Assembly (NCBI GenBank): GCA_001464455.1
Contig: LNEI01000025.1
Span: 1-64,000 of the forward strand
DNA length: 64,000 nt
Source of the DNA: Acidobacteria bacterium Ga0077534
GTDB taxonomy: Bacteria > Acidobacteriota > Blastocatellia > Pyrinomonadales > Pyrinomonadaceae
Direction of reading: 5' to 3'
Shown: one piece after another, positions 1-51,367 of the stretch
How the letters are laid out: each line of letters begins with the position of its first letter
Numbering within the stretch: position 1 is the stretch's first letter
Notes under the pieces: generated by a model
What the model was told of the DNA's origin: nothing
What the model saw: the letters and a program-made list of their open reading frames with translations, nothing else
The model's database searches: none
Made by a program: the position numbers and the translations under genes

Positions 1-2486
1 CCCGGAAGAGGGATACCAATGATCGCATCATCTGCTGCGGAACCCGCTACGAATGTGCCTCCTGCCGGTATCGTGGCACCCGCAGTACTGACAAACGTAT
101 AGTTCGGATTCGCGGTCTGTCCGACTCCCAGGGTTAAGTTAAAGACCTGCGGCGAAGCTCCTCCCGTGAATGTCACTGTCAATACCAGATTGATCGTGCT
201 CGCACAGGCTACCGAGTTGCTCGTAGATATCTGGAAGGGCGTCGTATTGGTCTGCGTTCCGCCGGCAGCGATCGTCGGGTATGCCGAATTCGGCTGCGAG
301 ATCGTGACCCCAGGGGTTGTCGTCGAAAGCACTGCACTAACAGCCGTAGCTGAGATGTCACCACTTAGATTCGTTAGATTAATGTTTACCGAGTTGCATT
401 CGTTGGGTTCGATCAGGTTGTTGCCTGTTGTGACTGTCGGAGCTCCGGCTGAGAGCAATGGATTAATTCGCAGCGTTACGTCCTGATTGCGGGTAAGTGC
501 TCCGGACGTGCCTTGTATATTGAAGGGGTAATCCCCTACAGCCAGACCAGCGGTGTTACTTACGGTCATGGTCGAGGCATTTCCGGGTACGACCGGGTTT
601 GGTGAGAAGTTGACCGTCGTTCCTGCAGGATTTCCGGTTGCACTAAGCGTTACCGGATCTACAAAGCCCGAGACCGAGCCAACATTGACGCTGTAAACAG
701 CGTTACCTGAAAAGATAGCCTGTAGATTCGGGTTTGCCGATACTGAGAATCCAGGTGTGCCGCATGCATCGAATCTGAAACTTGAGATGCGAGTGCTCCA
801 CTGGGATGCGGCATTGTACTGGCCGGTAAACCAAAATGTGCAGTCGTCACTCGGGTCGACGCTCATTGCTGAGTAGTCGCCATAGCGATTACTGGCGTTG
901 TTTGCGGCCCCGGCTGCCAATACTGTCTCAGCCTGCGTCATAACGTTGAGCGTGTCAGAAGCGAGTCGGCCGGTGTATCGGATGGACGGGAAAATGGTCT
1001 GGCTGGAAACGTTGTATGCCAGAGCGATGTTTCCGGCTCCGTCCATAGCGATGCCGGCCATCCATCGGTTATCGAGAGCGGTGGGCGAGTATGTACCGGT
1101 CTGGTGGAGCGTCCAACTGCCAGCCCCGACACGTCTCAATTCAAACCACCGAACGCCTCCGATATTAGCTCCGACGTCCGTCACAAAGTTGCCAAGCAAT
1201 GTCTCGTGAGTACCGAAATTACGATAAACGAGACGATTCATGATGACCTCGCGAAGCGGGTCGAGCGATGATCCCGCACCCTGAGCAACGCCCGGCATGC
1301 CCATACAGAAGAAAGACGTCTGGCCGCATAGGGTCGAGTCGAATTCAGGGAATATCTGAATTGCGTCAGGCCTCCAGTTGGCTACATCCGGGGCCCGGTC
1401 CATTCGCGTTCCTTCGGGCGAATTTACTGTTGTAAGGAGGGCAAAGGTTGAGTTTGCAGGAACTGCAAAATCCGGCGAGAACGCCCAGATCTGCAAGCTG
1501 TCGCCGCCCGGCGTACCCGGCGGGAAATGTATCTCGTCGTCGACCTGTCGCATGAACAGTCCGGGAGCATTCGCAGCAGGGCCAACAGCTCCGTCAACAT
1601 CAGCGGGTGTGAGTGCCTGGAATCCGAAACCGCTGAGCGAAGGTGCGGTGAACCGGATAAAGGTCGCGGCCAAGCCGGCGATCATGTTGGTTCGGTTCAG
1701 GGCATAGACCGCTGGGGATGCTTCGTTTGACGAGACGTAGTATGCATTTGACCAAACGCCGTACTTCGGATAATCCGGAAAGCCGGGTGCCTGGAAGGCA
1801 TAGGCAAAGTAAGTGCCGGCCGGATCAGGCGTGGTTGAGATGTAAACACAGAGGCGATTTCCGCTGCTCGAAAACTCGCTGAGCATCCAACGGTTTGCGG
1901 CCTGGTCGTACAGAACGATCGGGTCGCCGGCACCTGCGTTACACGGAGCGGCAGTAGCAAGGGTTTCCATCACGAACTGAGCTCCGATGGTCGCACCCGT
2001 TGTTTTGTTGTAGATCTGCACGCGTGAACCGCCGCTGGCGTTGATGGCCTGAACATAGTGATTCGGGCCTACATCGCCGACGGTGTCAGGTGGATTTACG
2101 TTGGTAAATCCCTGGCCGTCGAAGTTAAGGATCGGGTTATTGAAAGCGTTTGGGGCGGCAGGCTCCGTTTGCAGCTGCAGAAAGGCAAGCGGGTCGGCAT
2201 CGGCGTACTGTTCCGGGCCGAAGGTGTGTTCCTTTGACCGTCTGCGACGCTCTTCGAAGTCGTGCGTCTTTCGGGGGTTGATATCCCTGACTGGTTCATC
2301 CGGAAGCCTCGGGGCCGCAAGTTCTCTTGCCGGCCTTGAGACCGTCGGTCGAACCGGCTCGCCGACGACCATTGCGGATTGCCCTTGCTGTCCGCTAACC
2401 TGCCCGACAGCGAGAAAGCCCGCTGCAAATATCGTACATACGACGGCGAAAACTAAACTTTTTGCCGAAAACCCGCTCTTTTTCAT
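1..2486 (-). CDS. Large secreted protein with Ig-like C-terminal part (partial, 3' end outside window)
   Basis: An open frame runs without a stop from ATG at 2486 to the left edge (at least 828 codons). The start has a GAGG motif about 8 nt upstream; an earlier ATG at 2494 stops after three codons. Residues 1-33 form a signal peptide (basic MKKSG start, hydrophobic core, cleavage near VSGQ). A proline-rich linker follows, then a region beginning FDGQGFTNVNPPDTVGDVGP that is typical of large secreted proteins in this lineage and continues with propeller-like segments. From about residue 600 come two Ig/CARDB-like beta domains (SVSANPNLQAIFSGNAVYSV; then a segment with EPNECNSVNINLTN). No catalytic motif is visible. 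Probably an exported cell-surface or extracellular protein; function unknown. The missing end may carry a sorting or P-type domain. Confidence 0.8.
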   Translation of the reverse strand, partial: MKKSGFSAKSLVFAVVCTIFAAGFLAVGQVSGQQGQSAMVVGEPVRPTVSRPARELAAPRLPDEPVRDINPRKTHDFEERRRRSKEHTFGPEQYADADPLAFLQLQTEPAAPNAFNNPILNFDGQGFTNVNPPDTVGDVGPNHYVQAINASGGSRVQIYNKTTGATIGAQFVMETLATAAPCNAGAGDPIVLYDQAANRWMLSEFSSSGNRLCVYISTTPDPAGTYFAYAFQAPGFPDYPKYGVWSNAYYVSSNEASPAVYALNRTNMIAGLAATFIRFTAPSLSGFGFQALTPADVDGAVGPAANAPGLFMRQVDDEIHFPPGTPGGDSLQIWAFSPDFAVPANSTFALLTTVNSPEGTRMDRAPDVANWRPDAIQIFPEFDSTLCGQTSFFCMGMPGVAQGAGSSLDPLREVIMNRLVYRNFGTHETLLGNFVTDVGANIGGVRWFELRRVGAGSWTLHQTGTYSPTALDNRWMAGIAMDGAGNIALAYNVSSQTIFPSIRYTGRLASDTLNVMTQAETVLAAGAANNASNRYGDYSAMSVDPSDDCTFWFTGQYNAASQWSTRISSFRFDACGTPGFSVSANPNLQAIFSGNAVYSVNVGSVSGFVDPVTLSATGNPAGTTVNFSPNPVVPGNASTMTVSNTAGLAVGDYPFNIQGTSGALTRNQDVTLRINPLLSAGAPTVTTGNNLIEPNECNSVNINLTNLSGDISATAVSAVLSTTTPGVTISQPNSAYPTIAAGGTQTNTTPFQISTSNSVACASTINLVLTVTFTGGASPQVFNLTLGVGQTANPNYTFVSTAGATIPAGGTFVAGSAADDAIIGIPLP

Positions 2487-2809
2487 ATTTTCATCCTCAC
2501 TCAAATAGCCAGCGTCTCTCCAAAAGGCATTGATCTGCCGTTTGAAGACACGAACCCCTAATCTCAGACATTCAAGGCATCTCCTCTTGGAGAGCCGAAG
2601 TAATACAGCTTTTTTTGGAACTTGCGAATTGTAGTACGGAAGCTGTTCAGAGTCAACTAATTTAATTGCCCTGATCCAAAGGAGATAACACGCTTCGGCA
2701 ATATCGTCGGCAACGACGAGCTTTTGTTTTTCATCTCACTGCGGTAGACTACGTTCCCGTCTGCTAGATGCAGACACTCGTCCTTTCCTAAGGATGGGAG
2801 CCAGGGAAT
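2487..2809. other. Intergenic region between the secreted protein gene and tmRNA
   Basis: About 320 nt without a supportable gene. It must hold the divergent promoters for the leftward secreted-protein gene and the rightward tmRNA, but I see no convincing -35/-10 pair. No repeats of the families found elsewhere in the window occur here. Confidence 0.5.
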
Positions 2810-3183
2810 GGGGGCGACAGGCTTCGACAGGGGCTTGTATAGATCTTTGAATGCACGTCGGGCTTGCGTGGTTAGCTCGTTAAAAAAACTGCTGCAAAAA
2901 CAAATGCTAATCAAGAATTAGCTCTTGCTGCCTAATTAACTTTAGCTCCAGCAATGTCACACCGGAAGTCCGCCTGATGCGACCGGCCGTGGCATAACAC
3001 AGTTCAGGCTCGGGCACGTTCTCCACCTGCGAACGTGACTTAAAGTTAGCCGGGTTAGTTTTTCGAGAGGTCTTGTCGGTTCATCTGCTCTTGAAAGGCG
3101 AAACATAAGTGAACTCGACTAAACGTGTAGATTTCACTGGTCGCAACCTTTGGATGCGGGTTCGATTCCCGCCGCCTCCACCA
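2810..3183 (+). ncRNA. ssrA: Transfer-messenger RNA (tmRNA)
   Basis: Rescues stalled ribosomes together with SmpB by acting first as alanyl-tRNA and then as mRNA for a degradation tag. The 5' end GGGGGCGACAGGCTTCGACA is the standard tmRNA start. Its first seven bases pair with CGCCTCC at 3173-3179 (one G-U), followed by A3180 and an encoded CCA at 3181-3183. The T-arm is GCGGG-TTCGATT-CCCGC at 3156-3172. The tag reading frame is at 2894-2935: GCA then codons giving AKTNANQELALAA and TAA; the LALAA end is the ClpXP/Tsp degron type. A preceding GCT (2891) could be the resume codon instead. Length 374 nt is normal for a one-piece tmRNA. Minus-strand ORFs across it (with the telltale RRRESNP and GGNRTRI strings) are artefacts. 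Confidence 0.96.
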
Positions 3184-3228
3184 CTTTCTAAGTAACAATA
3201 AAATTTGATCAACCGTCTCAGGGTGACA

Positions 3229-3343
3229 CGAATGCAAAAGCCCGACCGTGAGGAAGGGCGATACCTCCAACGTGGTCTGTACCCGAAGGGTGATGCTCCG
3301 AACGTTCGCGTACCGCCCTTACTTACGTGCGGGCTTTCGCAAC
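3229..3343. repeat. 114-bp hairpin repeat, copy 1
   Basis: Near-identical to 11592-11706 (three mismatches, all in the right arm). The ends are imperfectly complementary: GCAAAAGCCCG at 3234-3244 against CGGGCTTTCGC at 3330-3340, and GGAAGGGCG against CGCCCTTACT, so the unit can fold into one long stem. It lies 45 nt after tmRNA and is flanked by GTCTCA/TGAGAC motifs. Confidence 0.85.
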
Positions 3344-3344
3344 A

Positions 3345-3455
3345 TCGTCTCAAGCGTCTCACTGTCTCACCCTGAGACGACTGAGACAGGTGAGACGATG
3401 TGAAACGTTCATCCCACCGTCCCATCCATCCCACTCATCCCAAGAGGGGATTTTC
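3345..3455. repeat. TGRRAC nonamer array
   Basis: Several GTCTCA motifs at about 9-nt spacing, a switch to TGAGAC at about 3372, then GTGAAAC and a run of TCCCA motifs (ATCCCACCG, GTCCCATCC, ATCCCACTC). Belongs to the array family described at 6252-6347. Confidence 0.75.
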
Positions 3456-3536
3456 GTATGCAGAGCGACCTTTTTGGTTCATACGATCAGGATTATGCGA
3501 CAATTCCTATAGAACTAAGATCAGCGGAGAACCGCG

Positions 3537-4703
3537 TTGTTTTCATACCAGACGACAATTCGTTTAATGCTCCTGATGGCCATCCTGGCATCGGTTTTGA
3601 GTGTTACAGCTCAGGATAAGGCTCCTTCGATGCGGGAGCTGATGGCTGCGAGGGCTTTGCTGACGTCGGATGAGTCGGTGAGGCTTGCGAACGGCGAGAC
3701 GGTGGTCAAGATACTGCCTTCGCAGGACAAGCGGGAGATATCGGTCATCGGGATAGTTAAGGTTCCGTCGGCTCAGAGCACGGACCTTGCAGGATTTCGT
3801 GAGAGCCTTAGCCAGCGGGGCAATGCCGATGCGATGGATGGCGGCAAGTTCAGCGTTCCTCCCGTCCTGGGCGATCTGGAACGTCTAAAGCCGGATGAGC
3901 GTGACCTTGCCGATATGCAGCGGTGCGTTGTTGGAAAGTGTTCGGTCAAGCTCTCTGCCGAGATGATCACCGCCTTGAAAGGCGTCGATTGGAACGCTCC
4001 TGACGCCCGTAAACAGGCGGCTGAGGTCTACAAGCGGCTGCTCGTCGAGCACGCCAAAGCGTATCTTGCGAAAGGCGATGCCGGTCTGCCGGATTATGTC
4101 GACCACAAGCAGAATGTTCGCCCATCGGTTGAGAATCGGTCTGTACTTGATGCCTCATTTCTGATGAAGGCTCTCGCCCCCGACCTTGACGACTATCTGC
4201 GACGTTATCCCAACGCCGCTGTGCCCGGCATCGAGAGCCGACTGGATTGGACAAACGTCAGCTCCGGGCTGAAGCCGATACTCACCATTACGCATACTGC
4301 AAGCTATGCCAAAGAAACGCGGGATTCGTCGATCCTGATGATAGCGACCAAGCAGGTGTATGCGAGCCACTACGTCGATGCATCGCTTGCCGTTTCTTCG
4401 CTCGTCCGAGATGCGGATGAGACTTACCTCGTCTTTACGAACGTCTCCCGCTCTGACGCCCTTGGTGGAGCGTTGAGCGGCATCGCTCATTCGATCACCG
4501 AAGGAGAGGCCGTTCGGAAGGTGACCGACCTGCTGGCAAGGGCGAAAGTTCGTCTTGATGCTCCAAACCGGACACCGGCCCAGAAGGTCGAACCCGAATC
4601 CGGCCTGATCGACAACGCCCGAAGCTGGCTCGTTCCGGCTGTCGCCGTTTTGTTGATAGCTGTGCCCTTGTTTCTCTTTTTCAGAAGGCGACAAACGAGG
4701 TAG
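3537..4703 (+). CDS. Secreted or membrane-anchored protein of unknown function
   Basis: 388 residues. A signal peptide (hydrophobic stretch LMLLMAILASVLSVTA, cleavage before QDK) is followed by a soluble domain of about 310 residues with a possible disulfide pair (QRCVVGKCSVKL). A C-terminal transmembrane segment (SWLVPAVAVLLIAVPLFLFF) ends in RRRQTR, so the domain should face the periplasm while anchored by its C-terminus. The reported start is TTG at 3537, which has GGAGA 6-8 nt upstream; ATG codons at 3567 and 3576 would shorten the signal peptide. The stop is 2 nt before the D-aminoacylase-like gene, so the two are probably co-transcribed and translationally coupled. No family recognised. 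Confidence 0.75.
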   Translation: MFSYQTTIRLMLLMAILASVLSVTAQDKAPSMRELMAARALLTSDESVRLANGETVVKILPSQDKREISVIGIVKVPSAQSTDLAGFRESLSQRGNADAMDGGKFSVPPVLGDLERLKPDERDLADMQRCVVGKCSVKLSAEMITALKGVDWNAPDARKQAAEVYKRLLVEHAKAYLAKGDAGLPDYVDHKQNVRPSVENRSVLDASFLMKALAPDLDDYLRRYPNAAVPGIESRLDWTNVSSGLKPILTITHTASYAKETRDSSILMIATKQVYASHYVDASLAVSSLVRDADETYLVFTNVSRSDALGGALSGIAHSITEGEAVRKVTDLLARAKVRLDAPNRTPAQKVEPESGLIDNARSWLVPAVAVLLIAVPLFLFFRRRQTR

Positions 4704-4705
4704 AT

Positions 4706-6211
4706 TTGTCTATTATTTCAAAAACTATGAAACATCTGTCCGCCCTGCTGAGAACAGTCGCCCTAGTGCTTCTTTGTACGCTTATTTCGACCGCCCAGAC
4801 CGTTTCGGTGGTCATTCAGAATGCCACCATTATCGACGGCACGGGGAAGGCCTCGTTCCGTGGTGACGTGCGTATAAAGGGCGGAAAGATAGAGCGGATA
4901 GGGAAGATCAAGCCGTCTAAGATGGATGAGGTGATCGATGCGACTGGCCTCGTGCTGGCTCCGGGATTTATTGATATCCACAACCATTCCGAGTCGGGCC
5001 TTCTGAGCGAAGGTGCGGCGGCAAATCAGGTTTCACAGGGCATCACGACCATACTCGTCGGGCCTGACGGCGGTTCGCCGTGGCCGATAGCCGAGTATCT
5101 GGGCAAGCTTGAGGGCAAGATCGCTCCGAATGTAGGTGCGTTTATCGGCCATGCCGAGGTTCGCACACAGGTGATGAAGCAGGACACGAGACGCACTGCC
5201 ACGCCCGAGGAAGTAGCGGCGATGGCAAAGCTCGTCGAGCAGGCGATGCAGGAAGGTGCTTTCGGGCTGTCGTCAGGGCTGGAATACGACACGGGCTTTA
5301 TGGCTTCGATCGAGGAGATGATCGAGCTTGCAAGAGCCGCGGCCCGTCATAAAGGCATCTACATGAGCCACATCCGTGACGAGGAAGAGGGCTTTCGAGC
5401 GGCGATGGAAGAGGCGATACGCATCGGTAAGGAAGCGAGACTGCCCGTTCAGCTCTCGCACATCAAGATGGGCAACCGAAACGTATGGGGCAAGTCGGCC
5501 GAGGCCATCCAGCTTATCGAAGCGGCAAAGAAAGCCGGTCAGGATGTGACGGCGGACGCTTATCCCTATACCGCTTGGGCTTCGACGATCACGGTTTTGG
5601 TTCCGAGCCGGAAGCACGAGGACCGAGTCGAGGTGGAAAAGGGCTTAAATAATGTAGGTGGAGCCGACAAGGTGCTGATCACCAGCCATGCGGCAAACCG
5701 TTCGTACGAGATGAAGAACATGGCACAGATATCGGCTGAAAAGGGCATTTCGCCTATCGACCTGTACATCGAGATAGTCAAGAACGGCGGTGCTGGCGTG
5801 GTCTGCAATTCGATGAGCGAGGAGGACGTTAAAGCCTTCTACACACGCCCTTGGGTGATGGTCTCAAGCGACGGCGGCATCGGCGGTCGGCATCCGCGTG
5901 GAACGGGCACGTTTCCCCGCGTTCTGGGGCGTTTTGTGCGTGAAAGCAAGTGGCTCTCGCTCGAATCCGCGATCCACAAAATGTCCGCCATGCCCGCTGC
6001 TCGTCTCGGAATGAAAGATCGCGGAATCATCAAGAAAGGCATGAATGCCGACCTCGTTCTCTTCGACCCCAACACCGTCATCGACAACGCCACCTTCGCC
6101 CAACCGCAAAACCTCGCGACCGGAATAAAAGCCGTAATGGTCAACGGAACAAAGGTCTGGGATGGCCTGAAACCAACGGGAGCCATGCCGGGAAGCGTCC
6201 TCAAAAGGTAA
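4706..6211 (+). CDS. N-acyl-D-amino-acid deacylase (D-aminoacylase-like amidohydrolase), exported
   Basis: 501 residues with a signal peptide (hydrophobic core around residues 14-30). The family hydrolyses N-acyl-D-amino acids at a zinc site in a TIM barrel. Visible motifs: HNH near residues 92-94 (DIHNHSES), GHAEVR, SHIRDE near 221, QLSHIKMG near 251 and SSDGG near 388, in the order expected for D-aminoacylase/dihydroorotase-like enzymes; the N- and C-terminal beta-sandwich is present (VVIQNATIIDGTG; LVLFDPNTV). The start is TTG 4706 with GAGG five nt upstream; ATG 4727 is the alternative and has no Shine-Dalgarno. The stop TAA at 6209-6211 lies inside an A-rich 31-bp repeat unit, so the last residues (KR) come from repeat DNA. 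Substrate not predictable; D-amino acid derivatives from peptidoglycan are one possibility. Confidence 0.88.
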   Translation: MSIISKTMKHLSALLRTVALVLLCTLISTAQTVSVVIQNATIIDGTGKASFRGDVRIKGGKIERIGKIKPSKMDEVIDATGLVLAPGFIDIHNHSESGLLSEGAAANQVSQGITTILVGPDGGSPWPIAEYLGKLEGKIAPNVGAFIGHAEVRTQVMKQDTRRTATPEEVAAMAKLVEQAMQEGAFGLSSGLEYDTGFMASIEEMIELARAAARHKGIYMSHIRDEEEGFRAAMEEAIRIGKEARLPVQLSHIKMGNRNVWGKSAEAIQLIEAAKKAGQDVTADAYPYTAWASTITVLVPSRKHEDRVEVEKGLNNVGGADKVLITSHAANRSYEMKNMAQISAEKGISPIDLYIEIVKNGGAGVVCNSMSEEDVKAFYTRPWVMVSSDGGIGGRHPRGTGTFPRVLGRFVRESKWLSLESAIHKMSAMPAARLGMKDRGIIKKGMNADLVLFDPNTVIDNATFAQPQNLATGIKAVMVNGTKVWDGLKPTGAMPGSVLKR

Positions 6212-45039: not shown

Positions 45040-45108
45040 TAGAAAGCGGCGAAGCGGCTTATTGCGCCACTTCTATTTTGAGTCCCCACTTTTAGAGGAG
45101 CATTGGAA

Positions 45109-47721
45109 ATGAAGATATCAATTTTCGGTTTTACGGCGACAAGGAAACTCGCGGCTATCGCGATCCTTGCCTCGTTCGTTTTTTCGAATGCCCTGGTCAT
45201 TGGCCAGGTCCGTTCCGAAAAGATCCAAATCGCATCGACTGCGACCGCGAAATATACCACTAATTTGACGCAGCTTGGCCGTGAAGGAAGATTGCGTGCA
45301 AACCTAAGCTTTGAAGCCGAGACGATGCGTCTCGTCAAGGCGTTAGCAGAACGTGGGGTTCGTCAGCCCGTCATCGTCGATCAGGATAAAGCAGTTCAGC
45401 AAGCCATCGTTGAGCAGGCAGCGATCCGCATCGCAAAAGGTACCGTGCCGGGAACCCTCGCGAACAAGACCATCCTAAAGCTGGAAACTGAGACTCTCTT
45501 TTCCAACGCTCGCACGCCTGCCGAAGCCGCAACCGTTGTTAATTCGATAATTAATGAAGTCGTTGCTTCGAATGGCCAGACGATACTGTTCATCGATGAA
45601 ATGACAAATCTCATTGGTGCAACGTCAGTCAAGAATAACCTTTTTAACGCGGTCACTGAAGGGAAGATCGTAATGATCGGCGGCAGTTCAGCTGCGGATT
45701 ATGACGAGCGGATCAATTCCGATGCTTCAATCGCTGGATTCTTCGCAGGCATACTTGTACATGATCGCAATTCGGCAACGGCTTCCAATACAGAGGAAAC
45801 CGCCAGCCGCGGCGGATATCAGGGTGATAACGTTTCGCCGGACCTGCGGGAAATGATGAAGCAGGATCCGACCGGTAAAAAGCGTGTAGACGTCATCATC
45901 CAAGCGAAAGATGCCGATAACGCAGGTCTTCGACAGCTAATGGCAAGCGGGCAGGCACGTGTTTCCGACAGGATCGGCAATAGCGAAACTCTGGTCGTCA
46001 ACCTACCGCTTTCAGCTCTCGAGGCACTCTCAACAAGTGGCCTGATCAACTATATTTCGCCTGATCGCGAGCTCAGGGTAACCGGTCATATCGAAGAAAC
46101 GACCGGCGCCATTGCGATGCGCTCTCAGCCGTCGATGAACGGTCGTCCGGCCTATACGCTGGATGGGAACGGTGTCGGTGTTGCCGTTGTGGACTCGGGT
46201 ATTCAGAAGAACCACAAGGGCTTCAAGACGAATGGTTCAGGTTCGTCTCGAATTGTCGCGAATGTAAACTTCACGACGTCTGATATGAACGCGACCACCG
46301 ACAACTACGGTCATGGAACACATGTCGCCGGCTTGGCGGCAGGTGCAGCAAGCGCTCGCTCGAATGGTTACAGAGGAGTGGCACCAAACTCGAAGCTCAT
46401 TAGTGTCAAGGTCCTCGGTTCAAACGGTGAGGGCAACACGTCGTCTCTCCTTAACGGCCTTGACTGGATACTGAACAACGCCGGAACCTACGACATCAAG
46501 GTTGTTAACCTGAGCCTAGGCACGACGGCCATCGATTCCTACATGAATGATCCGATCTGTTTGAAGGTCAAGCAGCTCGTCGAATCGGGCATTGTCGTCA
46601 TAGCGGCCGCGGGAAACCTTGGCAAATCGGCGACCGGCGGAAAAGCCTACGGCCGTATTCATTCGCCAGGCAACAGCCCATACGCGATAACGGTCGGGGC
46701 TACAAACAGCTATGGGACGGATTCGCCGGCAGATGATACGATCACATCGTTCAGCTCACGCGGGCCAACACGCAGCTTCTTTACCACTTCGAACGGAATG
46801 CGCGTTTATGACAACCTCATCAAGCCAGACATTGTCGCTCCGGGAAACCGTCTTGTTTCCTACAAAGCGGTTGGAAACACGATGTCGATGAACAATCCAT
46901 CGCTTGATGTAGCTCCTGTTGGTGGAGAGACAACGGATGATGCTCTGATGTATATGAGCGGCACGTCGATGTCGGCTCCGGTCGTTGCTGGTGCAGCAGC
47001 CCTTCTGATGCAGGTCAATCCGAACCTGACCCCTGGGATGGTCAAGATGATCCTCCAGTACACCGCTCAGCCTGTCGCGGGCGCAAACACCTTCGAGCAG
47101 GGCGCCGGTCAGCTTAACCTTGAGGGCGCGGTTCGCCTCGCTCGTTCACTTAGGACGGACGTACAGTTCGATAACCTTAACAAAGGCAGTTCGATGGTAC
47201 CTTCAGGCTGGTCGATGCCTTCTACAACATCGAGCATCGGTGGCTCTTCGTTTGACTGGGCACAGCTCATCACAGGAGACCACACGTTCATGACTGGCCA
47301 GAATCTCGTGTCGAAGTTCCAGAACGTATATAAAACCTCAAATACGTTTGGCCAGGGAGTCACTTTCTCCTCAGGAGCGTTCAACCTCACCGGTGCTGGT
47401 ATGTTCACGACCGGCTTGACCGTTAACCGAACCGTTACGACCAGTAATGGTGGTTCGATGGGTAGCGGCTCAATATGGCTGACCTACGGCGTGCTCGTTG
47501 GCGACGGCGTTCTTGTCGGGGATGGCGTGCTGGTAGGTGACGGCGTACTGGTCGGAGATGGTGTGCTTGTCGGCGATGGAGTACTTGTCGGTGACGGCGT
47601 GCTTGTTGGCGATGGCGTACTTGTCGGTGACGGAGTTCTCGTCGGCGATGGTGTGCTTGTCGGGGATGGCGTGCTGATCGGTGATAGTGCTCTTGGCGAC
47701 GATACACCGTCAATGCAGTAG
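45109..47721 (+). CDS. Secreted S8 (subtilisin-like) protease with ClpB-like pseudo-ATPase N-domain
   Basis: 870 residues from ATG 45109 with GAGGAG 8 nt upstream. Signal peptide ([20 protein letters not shown]). Residues about 45-220 align with the AAA+ D1 domain of ClpB/Clp[36 protein letters not shown] (degenerate Walker A), [30 protein letters not shown] (Walker B kept). An I9-like propeptide follows at 255-325 ([18 protein letters not shown]). The S8 triad is Asp in VAVVDSGIQ (about 361), His in YGHGTHVAG (about 401) and Ser in [12 protein letters not shown] (about 618). After residue 680 comes a Ser/Gly-rich region and 11 tandem VLVGDG-type hexapeptides (47491-47688). Extracellular or surface protease; substrate unknown. 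Confidence 0.9.
47491..47688 (+). repeat. Eleven 18-bp coding repeats (VLVGDG)
   Basis: Ten VLVGDG and a final VLIGDS unit in the subtilase C-terminus. Units differ at many third codon positions (GTGCTC, GTTCTT, GTGCTG, GTACTG for VL) but not in protein sequence. Confidence 0.95.
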
Positions 47722-47771
47722 CTCTAATTACAACTACTAACCACATATTAATTGTAAAAAGGAGAAAAAAC

Positions 47772-48677
47772 ATGCTGCAGATAAATGCCAACACACCACA
47801 GGTGCGCGAATACGGCGTCGTACCTTACATGGCGTTCACGGCTGATGTACAAAGAGTCAGTGAACTTGATCAAGAGAATACAGCAGAAGTTTTGGGATTC
47901 CTCAGTGTAAGGCCGGTACATACAGTTGTAATGACCAGCTTTATAAATGACAACGGCATCGTAAGCGAACTCAACCGAGGTAAGTTCTTCGGCTATAGAA
48001 ATAGTCAAGGAGTGCTTGAGGGAGTAGCCTTGATCGGACATTCGACTCTGGTCGAAGCCCGAACCGAAGCCGCCGTCCGGGCGCTTGCAATGATCGCAAG
48101 AAACTCCGAAACGCCGATCCACCTGATCATGTCAAGTGGTGATGCTGCTCAAACCTTCTGGAACTACCTTAGCAATGGGTTAAGTCAGCCACGGTTAACC
48201 TGCGTCGAGAGACTGTTCGAAGCTGCCTTTCCATTCATGGTTCAGGGCACGGACACAGGACTCCGACTAGCAGAAGCCGGCGAACTGATCGCCGTCGCGG
48301 AAGCTCAAGCTGAGGTTGCATTCATTGAATCTGGTGTCGACCCGATGCTGAAGGATCGTGAAGGCTTCCTACGCCGCGTAGCACGCAGGATAGAACAAGG
48401 CCGCATCTTTGTAGTCTTTGACGGTGACAAGCTTGTATTTAAGGCTGACATCATCGCTGAGACCGAGGATGTTGCCTATCTCGAAGGCGTCTATGTCGGA
48501 GCTGAGTATCGCGGAAAAGGTATCGGCCCTAAGTGCCTCTCGGCAATGACGGTTGAACTGCTCTCGCGAGTCTCGAACGTCTGCTTGCTTAGCAATGTCG
48601 ACTTTTCGTCTGCACACCGCAGTTTCGAAAAGGCTGGATTCCGCAGTTCGGATGAGTGCACGACACTATTTGTTTAA
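47772..48677 (+). CDS. GNAT family N-acetyltransferase
   Basis: 301 residues, AAGGAG before ATG. The C-terminal half is a GNAT fold: the acetyl-CoA loop in VYVGAEYRGKGIGPKCLSAM (RGKGIG at about 240), then VCLLSNVDFSSAHRSFEKAG, an Asn/Ser-containing end motif. The N-terminal 130 residues (ENTAEVLGFLSVRPVHTVVM; YRNSQGVLEGVALIGH) look like the second, degenerate GNAT half in two-domain members. 50 nt downstream of the subtilase, same strand; a shared transcript is likely. Acceptor unknown. Confidence 0.85.
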   Translation: MLQINANTPQVREYGVVPYMAFTADVQRVSELDQENTAEVLGFLSVRPVHTVVMTSFINDNGIVSELNRGKFFGYRNSQGVLEGVALIGHSTLVEARTEAAVRALAMIARNSETPIHLIMSSGDAAQTFWNYLSNGLSQPRLTCVERLFEAAFPFMVQGTDTGLRLAEAGELIAVAEAQAEVAFIESGVDPMLKDREGFLRRVARRIEQGRIFVVFDGDKLVFKADIIAETEDVAYLEGVYVGAEYRGKGIGPKCLSAMTVELLSRVSNVCLLSNVDFSSAHRSFEKAGFRSSDECTTLFV

Positions 48678-48720
48678 TAAAAATAAACGGTAGACAAAAA
48701 TGTTAGGCTAGTTCATAATT

Positions 48721-48746
48721 GGGAAGGCTCGGATACCGGCCTTCCC
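48721..48746 (+). terminator. Possible terminator after the GNAT gene
   Basis: GGGAAGGC and GCCTTCCC pair (8 bp) around a 10-nt loop, followed by ATTTGCTATTCTTT. T-content is modest. Confidence 0.6.
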
Positions 48747-48859
48747 ATTTGCTATTCTTTAAATTAGCCGTTCTCTCATCATTCCGCACCACCCGTTGAA
48801 AGCCTCCCCATCACTTAAGCGATCTCGACCTCGATCGTGATCACATAAGGCTTCAAACA

Positions 48860-51367
48860 ATGGATCGAACCAAAATCTCAAACAGATATATGGCGACGGT
48901 GATCGTCGCGGGCATAGCGTGTGTGCTTTTTGCGCTCGCCAATGTCCGCTTCGCATCGGCCGACATATATCTTGTTGTTCTGGCCGTATTTACGGTTGGT
49001 ATTGGTTCGAGAATGACGATTCAGATACCGCGATTCAAATCGCATATTTCTGTTTCCGACATCTTTATCTTCCTCGCACTACTCGTCTATGGTGGCGAGT
49101 ACGCAGTGATACTGGCGGCAGTCGAAGCAACAGCATCCTCATGGAGATTCTGCAACCGCAAGATAACGGTATTTTTCAATGCCGCAACGATGGCGATATC
49201 GACGAGCGCCGTGGTTATCGTCCTTAAGGCCTTTGGGCTATACACGGAGGAGCATCTTCATGGTCACGGTGAAAATACATCGGCTTTTATCATCGTCCTA
49301 TCCTTGGTTGCTCTGACGCAGTTTATTGTCAATACATCTCTTGCCTCAATCCATGATTCTCTGAAAGCCGGTATAAATCTTTGGGAAACTTGGAAGACAA
49401 AGTACATCTGGACATTTTTTTCCTATTTTGTTGGGGCGGCGAGTGCGGGCTTGCTGGTGCAGGTCGCCGACGCAGTTGGAATAGCCATCCTTTTGGCCAC
49501 GTTCCCCGTGATCATTTTCGTCTTCCTTTCGTATCGGATGTATCTCAAAAATGTTGAGATCTCGATGCAGCAGGCCGAGCAGGCTGAGCAATACGCGAAG
49601 ATAATGGAAGAACAGTCGGAAGCACTGCGTGAATCTGAAGAGCGGTTTCGCAGTGCATTTGATTACGCTCCGATCGGGATCGGGCTGGTCTCGCCAAGCG
49701 GCATGTGGCTGAAAGCTAATCGTGCACTGACTGAGATCCTCGGCTACACCGAGGAGGACCTTCTGACGACTGACTTTCAATCCATTACGCTTCCCGAAGA
49801 CCTCGGCCTTACGCTTGTCAAGGTCCATGAAACTCTTGCAGGAAAGATCGCGAACTGCCAAATGGAGCAGCGCTACGTTCACAAGACCGGGCGAACCGTT
49901 TGGACGTCGTGGAGCGTGTCGGCAGCCAACGAAACTCAGGCGAAACAGCCAAATCTTATATTTCAGATCCAGGATATTACCGACAAGAAACGAGCCGAGG
50001 AAAAACTTCAGCATGATGCGACGCATGACGCCTTGACCGGTTTGCCGAATCGCCTGCTTTTTATGACCAGTCTCGACCGTGCTCTTGAACGGCGAAGGCT
50101 CGCGGACGAGTATCGTGTCAGCGTCCTCTTCATTGATCTTGACCGGTTCAAGTATGTAAACGACAGCCTTGGGCACATCATTGGCGATGAACTGCTGAAA
50201 GAGATAGCCATTCGACTTCGCGACTGCCTGCGGCCGTCGGATCTCGTCGCACGCCTTGGAGGGGATGAATTCACGATACTCGTTGAGGGAAATTACGAAG
50301 CATCTGAGGTTACGCGGATAGCCTCTCGGATCCAAAAGAAGTTCAGCATTCCATTCGATCTGCGCGGCCACGAGGTCTATAGTTCTGCGAGTATCGGGAT
50401 CCTTCACGCGACGGAAAAACACTATGCATCCGAGGATGTGATGCGTGATGCCGATACCGCTATGTATCAAGCAAAGCGAGCGGGCAAGGCCAGGCATGAG
50501 GTTTTCGACGAGAAAATGCATAGTGCTGCTAAAGAGATCCTCCGGCTCGAAACCGATCTCCGCCGCGCCGTCGAGCGTGAAGAGATACAGGTTTACTATC
50601 AGCCCATCTACACGCTGCAGACCGGCGAGATCGAGTGCTTTGAGTCGCTCGCCCGTTGGGACCATCCTGAACTCGGCAAGATCGCTCCTTCAAAGTTCAT
50701 CCCGCTCGCCGAGGAGATCGGGCTCATTGACCGTCTGTGCGAACAGATCCTACGACGGGCCTGTGTCGAGATCGGCTCGCTGCAAAATCGCAGCACCGAT
50801 CTGAGAAACTATTCGGTGAGCGTAAACCTCTCTTGCCGGCAGTTTAGCCAGAGCAATCTCGTCCAGCGAATCGAAGACATTCTCGACGAAACCCAGTTTT
50901 CACCGCGAAGGCTGAAACTCGAGATCACTGAATCGGTCTTTTTCGAGCATCAGGACCGAGCCGTCGTGATGCTCAATCAGCTGAGGGAGAGCGGTATCGA
51001 GATCAATATCGACGATTTCGGCACGGGCTACTCAAATCTCGGTTATCTGAAAAAACTGCCCATCTCTGCCCTCAAAGTAGACCGCTCATTCGTCTCGATG
51101 ATCGATTCCCAGGGGAATAACGACGAGATCGTCAGAGCGATCATCAACCTTTCGCGCACGCTTGGGCTCAAAGTCGTTGCAGAAGGCGTCGAGACCGAGA
51201 CCCAGCGCGACCTTCTCAAAGAACTGGAGTGCGAGGGCGGCCAGGGATTTTTCTTCGCACGACCAATGGGCTTTGACGATCTGAAAGCATTTCTCCAACA
51301 GCCTCCGCCATTATCAGTTGTTAAGCCCGGCTACGACGACGTTTCGACGATCCAGCAGCTTCAGTAA
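48860..51367 (+). CDS. Membrane-bound diguanylate cyclase/phosphodiesterase (PAS-GGDEF-EAL)
   Basis: 835 residues. Makes or breaks down cyclic di-GMP. Eight or so membrane segments at 1-225 (VIVAGIACVLFALANV; IFLALLVYGGEYAVILAA; LLATFPVIIFVFLSYRMYL) form a MASE-like sensor, then a coiled coil (QQAEQAEQYAKIMEEQSEAL) and a PAS domain at about 255-375. GGDEF domain: ARLGGDEFTIL near 466, active-site signature intact, but the I-site RxxD position is not clear. EAL domain: motif reads ESLARW near 594 instead of EAL, with KLEITES, DDFGTGYS, LKVDRSFV and AEGVET conserved. Either activity is possible; dual-domain enzymes often use one. Confidence 0.93.
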   Translation: MDRTKISNRYMATVIVAGIACVLFALANVRFASADIYLVVLAVFTVGIGSRMTIQIPRFKSHISVSDIFIFLALLVYGGEYAVILAAVEATASSWRFCNRKITVFFNAATMAISTSAVVIVLKAFGLYTEEHLHGHGENTSAFIIVLSLVALTQFIVNTSLASIHDSLKAGINLWETWKTKYIWTFFSYFVGAASAGLLVQVADAVGIAILLATFPVIIFVFLSYRMYLKNVEISMQQAEQAEQYAKIMEEQSEALRESEERFRSAFDYAPIGIGLVSPSGMWLKANRALTEILGYTEEDLLTTDFQSITLPEDLGLTLVKVHETLAGKIANCQMEQRYVHKTGRTVWTSWSVSAANETQAKQPNLIFQIQDITDKKRAEEKLQHDATHDALTGLPNRLLFMTSLDRALERRRLADEYRVSVLFIDLDRFKYVNDSLGHIIGDELLKEIAIRLRDCLRPSDLVARLGGDEFTILVEGNYEASEVTRIASRIQKKFSIPFDLRGHEVYSSASIGILHATEKHYASEDVMRDADTAMYQAKRAGKARHEVFDEKMHSAAKEILRLETDLRRAVEREEIQVYYQPIYTLQTGEIECFESLARWDHPELGKIAPSKFIPLAEEIGLIDRLCEQILRRACVEIGSLQNRSTDLRNYSVSVNLSCRQFSQSNLVQRIEDILDETQFSPRRLKLEITESVFFEHQDRAVVMLNQLRESGIEINIDDFGTGYSNLGYLKKLPISALKVDRSFVSMIDSQGNNDEIVRAIINLSRTLGLKVVAEGVETETQRDLLKELECEGGQGFFFARPMGFDDLKAFLQQPPPLSVVKPGYDDVSTIQQLQ

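What the first reader, a model, noticed from the sequence alone, without database searches (positions are those of the whole stretch)
45109..45780. Secreted subtilase carries a degenerate ClpB-type AAA+ domain
Between the signal peptide and the I9-like propeptide, about residues 45-220 line up with the D1 domain of ClpB/ClpA recalled from memory. From the Walker A site to Walker B the spacing appears identical. Walker A (GEPGVGKT in ClpB) reads VDQDKAVQQ, the pore-loop KYRG reads RTPA, but ILFIDEM (Walker B) and the KYTxxLT...GRL lead-in are kept. A signal peptide plus loss of ATP-binding residues suggests a chaperone domain re-used outside the cell, for example to bind or fold the protease. 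I know of no described AAA+/subtilisin fusion of this kind.
Basis: partly seen in the sequence, partly recalled or inferred. Interest (0 to 1): 0.82.

Follow-up and report, generated by a model that had tools for sequence, protein, structure and literature searches.

The report
Dead ClpB domain in secreted protease
In one family of Acidobacteriota, secreted subtilisin-type proteases carry, in front of their pro-peptide, a piece of the intracellular unfoldase ClpB that has lost every part needed to use ATP but kept its fold, so an intracellular motor domain seems to have been re-used outside the cell for a job not yet known.

Summary
Residues about 45-220 of the predicted secreted subtilase at window 45109-47721 are homologous to the large subdomain of ClpB NBD1/D1. 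Sequence: phmmer E 1.3e-19; family profile E 1.2e-45. Structure: AlphaFold model against ClpB NBD1 (1jbk), Z 23. In 83 distinct relatives none has a Walker A; the pore-loop aromatic is always gone, the arginine-finger pair almost always, while core residues are kept. The AAA+ lid is absent; the protease triad is intact.

The fusion is no one-off: 75 of 119 sampled genomes of the family (20 of 29 genera), none of the 43 other genomes of the class. Shorter sisters run straight from signal peptide to pro-domain; the neighbouring family showed only these, so the ClpB piece was inserted. Fused domains form one group apart from true Clp proteins and show constraint, dN/dS about 0.08-0.42.

Function is inferred: an ATP-independent accessory module of the pro-region. 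The gene usually heads a conserved cluster with a GNAT and/or GGDEF-EAL gene. I found no description of such a fusion in the papers I could search.

The parts
45109..47721 (+). Fused gene: signal peptide, pseudo-ClpB-D1, pro-domain, S8 subtilase, C-terminal repeats (870 aa from ATG 45109)
   Evidence: ORF; AGGAG upstream of ATG 45109; S8
45109..45210 (+). Signal peptide (end approximate)
   Evidence: Sequence [32 protein letters not shown] read directly; 68 of 80 fused relatives pass a simple hydropathy cut-off and the others come close. No dedicated predictor was available
45241..45768 (+). Pseudo-ClpB D1 large subdomain (residues 47-222)
45250..45294 (+). D1 lead-in [15 protein letters not shown], conserved among fusions
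45379..45402 (+). Position of Walker A, reads DQDKAVQQ (GEPGVGKT in ClpB)
45511..45522 (+). Position of the pore loop, reads RTPA (KYRG in ClpB)
45583..45603 (+). Walker B stretch ILFIDEM, kept in the window protein, variable in relatives
45736..45741 (+). Position of the arginine-finger pair RR, reads GF
45817..46092 (+). Pro-domain, I9/fervidolysin-like by weak evidence; shared with sister proteases that lack the D1 piece
46165..47109 (+). Peptidase S8 catalytic domain with Asp/His/Ser triad
   Evidence: Pfam PF00082 E 4.2e-52; triad
47491..47697 (+). C-terminal GVLVGD hexapeptide-like repeats
   Evidence: Pfam Hexapep E 2.3e-9
47772..48677 (+). Downstream GNAT acetyltransferase gene, conserved neighbour
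48860..51367 (+). PAS-GGDEF-EAL gene, conserved neighbour

Best explanation
A ClpB-type D1 large subdomain was inserted, probably once, between the signal peptide and the pro-domain of an ancestral secreted subtilase in this family of Acidobacteriota. Outside the cytoplasm, where ATP is scarce, the nucleotide-binding, pore-loop and arginine-finger residues were lost, while the fold was kept because it serves as an ATP-independent accessory module of the pro-region. Most likely mechanism (inferred): the protein is exported unfolded, the pseudo-D1 domain and pro-domain fold first, hold the protease precursor in a foldable and inactive state or dock it at its site of work, and are released together when the subtilase cuts itself free. 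Shown here: homology, predicted fold, loss of motifs, intact triad, family-wide conservation, insertion polarity, purifying selection. Inferred: export, the cleavage, and the holding or docking role.
For: Homology and fold. Motifs lost in 83 of 83 while core positions are kept. Triad intact. Position between signal peptide and a pro-domain shared with short sisters. Short form is the outgroup state. One branch in the D1 tree, 100/100. Constraint, dN/dS 0.08-0.42. 75 of 119 family genomes.
Against: Sister proteases with the same pro-domain lack the piece, so it is not needed for folding as such. Constraint is several times weaker than on the protease. No evidence here on processing, localisation or binding. 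The ClpB donor is favoured by an indel but ClpC or ClpA are not rejected by tree tests. On the S8 tree fused and short forms are mixed, needing 8 changes, though a single fused clade is not rejected.
Confidence: 0.5

Rival explanations
1. The pseudo-D1 domain stays with the mature enzyme, covalently or bound, and works as a substrate-binding or surface-docking module.
For: The D1 lead-in and core are conserved; some subtilases keep N-terminal domains (established knowledge); the gene also carries a C-terminal repeat module.
Against: It lies N-terminal of the pro-domain, the part normally cut off in subtilases (established knowledge); the aromatic pore-loop residue by which Clp proteins grip substrate is lost in all 83.
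Confidence: 0.25
2. Tolerated passenger: the inserted piece has no function beyond folding well enough not to disturb export, and drifts.
For: Weaker constraint than the protease; P-loop decays differently in different genera; fused and short forms are mixed on the S8 tree.
Against: dN/dS well below 1 in all pairs; core positions kept across 20 genera; the fused genes listed have no internal stops.
Confidence: 0.2
3. The domain acts before export or with cytoplasmic Clp proteins, for example as a dominant partner in a Clp ring.
For: The genome has several intact Clp proteins, and in genus g2 a ClpC gene lies near the fused gene.
Against: Signal peptide in front; arginine finger, pore loop and lid, needed in a ring, are missing; the ClpC link is absent in the other genera checked.
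Confidence: 0.04
4. Chance similarity, no homology to ClpB.
For: Pfam AAA models do not reach their cut-offs.
Against: E-values down to 1e-45, Z 23 to ClpB NBD1, 28 of 75 ungapped identities against at most 15 in 20,000 shuffles.
Confidence: 0.01

Closest known systems
ClpB / Hsp104 nucleotide-binding domain 1 (D1)
   Same: Homologous large subdomain: sequence, order of motifs, ClpB-type loop length before Walker B, predicted fold
   Different: No Walker A, pore loop, arginine finger or lid; no N domain, M domain or D2; predicted to be exported; fused to a protease
Subtilases (peptidase family S8A) with signal peptide and N-terminal pro-domain
   Same: Signal peptide, pro-domain, S8 domain with intact triad
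   Different: Extra pseudo-D1 domain ahead of the pro-domain
Torsins (ER-lumenal atypical AAA+ proteins, PMC7175109)
   Same: An atypical, degenerate AAA+ protein outside the cytosol
   Different: Torsins are eukaryotic, use ATP with cofactors, and are not fused to a protease
SMXL/SMAX1 proteins of plants (PMC9133912)
   Same: Atypical ClpB descendants in a new role
   Different: Nuclear regulators with the whole ClpB layout, Walker motifs in part kept
Lon and FtsH (AAA+ proteases)
   Same: A AAA+-derived part and a protease part in one polypeptide
   Different: Those have live motors and work on the cytoplasmic or matrix side; here the motor is dead, incomplete and predicted to be exported

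Membership tests
ClpB/Hsp100 D1 (homology) | Significant sequence match to ClpB NBD1 | tested here: met
   E 1.3e-19 single, 1.2e-45 profile; NCBIfam ClpB 3.5e-25
ClpB/Hsp100 D1 (homology) | RecA-like large-subdomain fold | tested here: met
   AF2 pLDDT about 70-93 in the domain; Z 23.0, 179 residues against 1jbk
Functional AAA+ ATPase | Walker A GxxxxGK[TS] | tested here: not met
   0 of 83 fused proteins
Functional AAA+ ATPase | Walker B Asp-Glu | tested here: inconclusive
   Present in the window (IDE); in relatives Asp 53 of 83, Glu 31 of 83
Functional AAA+ ATPase | Arginine finger | tested here: not met
   GF in the window; Arg in 3 and 7 of 83 at the two positions
Functional AAA+ ATPase | C-terminal lid subdomain | tested here: not met
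   Homology ends near residue 222 and the pro-domain follows; the model shows no lid
Functional AAA+ ATPase | ATP binding or hydrolysis, oligomer | not testable with these tools
   Needs purified protein
Subtilase, peptidase S8 | S8 domain with Asp/His/Ser triad and oxyanion Asn | tested here: met
   PF00082 E 4.2e-52; triad and Asn in 81-82 of 82
Subtilase, peptidase S8 | N-terminal pro-domain of I9 type | tested here: inconclusive
   Best PDB hits are subtilisin prosegments at E 0.42-0.45; Fervidolysin_NPro-like about 0.1; low-confidence model with alternating strands and helices
Secreted protein | N-terminal signal peptide | tested here: inconclusive
   Clear by eye and by a hydropathy scan; no dedicated predictor was available and export was not measured

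The most novel reading that the evidence does not exclude
The pseudo-D1 domains still assemble with each other and form an ATP-free ring or shell that gates or feeds the attached subtilases outside the cell: a motorless counterpart of the Clp protease chamber.
Probability: 0.05. Interest if true: 0.85.

Novelty: new variant of a known kind. Interest (0 to 1): 0.6.

Why it matters
AAA+ motors work where ATP is; a ClpB-derived domain kept in a predicted extracellular enzyme after losing its whole ATP site would show what the bare Hsp100 fold can be used for. Relatives with partial P-loop remnants and sister proteases without the domain give a natural series for watching an enzyme domain turn into a structural or regulatory one. 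Pfam models miss the domain, so other secreted proteins may carry such pieces unseen.

Tried and rejected
Chance similarity: rejected by E-values, structure and shuffles. Single-genome or assembly artefact: rejected by 75 genomes. Origin from the neighbouring ClpC gene in genus g2: the ClpB-type loop length speaks for ClpB, but AU tests do not reject ClpC or ClpA, so the donor stays open in the tree. Search for an intact, ATP-binding fused relative: none found. Model of pro-domain plus S8: low confidence (pLDDT 38.8) and not used as fold evidence. Pfam as a detector of the domain: fails. Two early scripts stopped on a pattern error and gave nothing. Paper searches for such a fusion, for subtilase propeptides in Acidobacteriota, and for Pyrinomonadaceae peptidase S8 gave nothing on it; the library holds open-licence papers only.

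Full report
What was claimed and what is there. The ORF is 45103-47721 (+), with ATG 45109 preceded by AGGAG. Pfam sees only the S8 domain (355-669) and C-terminal hexapeptide repeats, and nothing above cut-off in the N-terminal third. A single-sequence search of the PDB with residues 1-232 nevertheless returns 44 distinct sequences, ClpB/ClpA/ClpC/ClpE/Hsp104-type proteins (one, 8xon, is misnamed in its deposit but is a ClpC1 complex), the best a ClpB NBD1 at E 1.3e-19, aligned over residues 38-219 without a gap up to just past Walker B. A profile of 21 homologous domains gives E 1.2e-45. NCBIfam's ClpB model matches all 19 members tested, best 7e-50.

Structure. AlphaFold with only two rows (window plus L037) modelled the domain at pLDDT about 70-93 over most of its length. 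Foldseek's top hits are ClpB NBD1 structures (1jbk E 1.7e-12); VIA-align gives Z 23.0 over 179 residues against 1jbk, and the 50 entries listed are ClpB/ClpA/ClpC/Hsp104-type structures. Only the large subdomain is present: homology ends near residue 222, where ClpB would go on to its lid.

Degeneracy. In 83 distinct fused proteins Walker A never reads GxxxxGK[TS]; the Lys position is Q or R in 62; the pore-loop Tyr position is never aromatic; the arginine-finger positions keep Arg in 3 and 7 of 83; Walker B Asp survives in 53 and Glu in 31. By contrast positions kept in true Clp proteins that look like core positions (L81, A107, L119, I161, L162, F163, G193, F214) are kept here. Some genera still show P-loop remnants: L044 reads DPGFGRS, L040 GDAGEG. 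So the fold was kept while the ATP site drifted. The protease triad is intact in practically all.

Distribution and origin. With a profile of domain plus pro-domain, 75 of 119 sampled genomes of the window's family (20 of 29 genera) score beyond what the true Clp proteins reach, and 0 of 43 genomes of other families in the class do. One relative is named as an Acidobacteria MAG (L037), which places the family in Acidobacteriota; that it is Pyrinomonadaceae (class Blastocatellia) is my guess. Many S8 proteins of the family are about 640-700 aa and run from signal peptide directly into the same pro-domain. Using the pro-domain alone as bait over 396 genomes of the phylum, the only hits outside the family are in three genomes of family f2, all with open frames of 669-697 aa, the length of the short form. 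The ClpB piece is therefore most simply a derived insertion. In a tree of 83 fused domains and 41 Clp D1 domains the fused ones form one side of a branch (100/100). On the S8 tree fused and short forms need 8 changes, but a single fused clade is not rejected (p 0.356): one gain with several losses or exchanges is the simplest account. A one-residue length difference before Walker B groups the fusions with ClpB; the tree itself cannot tell ClpB from ClpC or ClpA.

Selection. For close pairs the domain's dN/dS is 0.08-0.42, against 0.04-0.12 for S8 and 0.03-0.17 for the pro-domain. These are simple Nei-Gojobori estimates and dS differs between parts of the gene, so only the order of magnitude should be trusted. 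The domain is constrained, but less than the protease.

Context. Downstream, in the window and in most relatives with enough flank, comes a GNAT gene and then a PAS-GGDEF-EAL gene; in a second group a GGDEF-EAL gene follows directly. Many short forms share this arrangement. The gene therefore belongs to a standing locus, and the domain is a variant part of its first gene. In genus g2 a ClpC gene lies near a fused gene, adjacent and divergent in two genomes.

How it probably works. Inferred: the precursor is exported; pseudo-D1 and pro-domain fold first and keep the subtilase inactive, foldable or correctly placed; self-cleavage frees the enzyme. The rivals are a lasting substrate or docking module, and a tolerated passenger. 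I cannot separate these without experiments; deletion and N-terminal sequencing would do so.

Known and new. SMXL proteins (PMC9133912) are ClpB-like proteins in another role, and Torsins (PMC7175109) are atypical AAA+ proteins of the ER and nuclear envelope; to my knowledge neither is fused to a protease. I found no description of a ClpB-derived domain in a secreted protease, but only open-licence full texts were searched. I rate it a new variant of a known kind: a secreted subtilase with a so far undescribed pseudo-AAA+ pro-region module.

Noticed in passing
window 45109-51367 and most related loci (e.g. L037, L126, L130, L131): Conserved cluster: secreted subtilase, then GNAT acetyltransferase, then PAS-GGDEF-EAL protein, on one strand; in a second group the GGDEF-EAL gene follows the subtilase directly. 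It is shared by many subtilases without the ClpB piece and suggests a link to c-di-GMP signalling.
   Followed up: partly
window 47491-47697: C-terminal run of GVLVGD hexapeptide-like repeats (Pfam Hexapep) at the end of the subtilase; such runs are seen in the relatives read too.
   Followed up: no
L131, L130, L129, L127 (genus g2): A fused subtilase gene lies near an intact ClpC gene, divergent and adjacent in G025 and G392 and within about 15 kb in the other g2 genomes; not linked in the other genera checked.
   Followed up: partly
L102/L098, L102/L101 and similar pairs: Synonymous divergence is several times lower in the pseudo-D1 part than in the S8 part of the same gene (0.24 against 1.05), possibly recombination or codon-use differences.
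   Followed up: no
L042 (G235:C263) 1656-4163 and 4292-5161: Two fused subtilase genes in tandem, the second cut by the contig end; a part of such a gene at the end of contig C86 (L043) may be the continuation, as the two ends carry the same stretch of protein.
   Followed up: no
L112 (G299:C1): A fused gene that reads as two open frames (361 and 523 aa), so probably frame-shifted.
   Followed up: no
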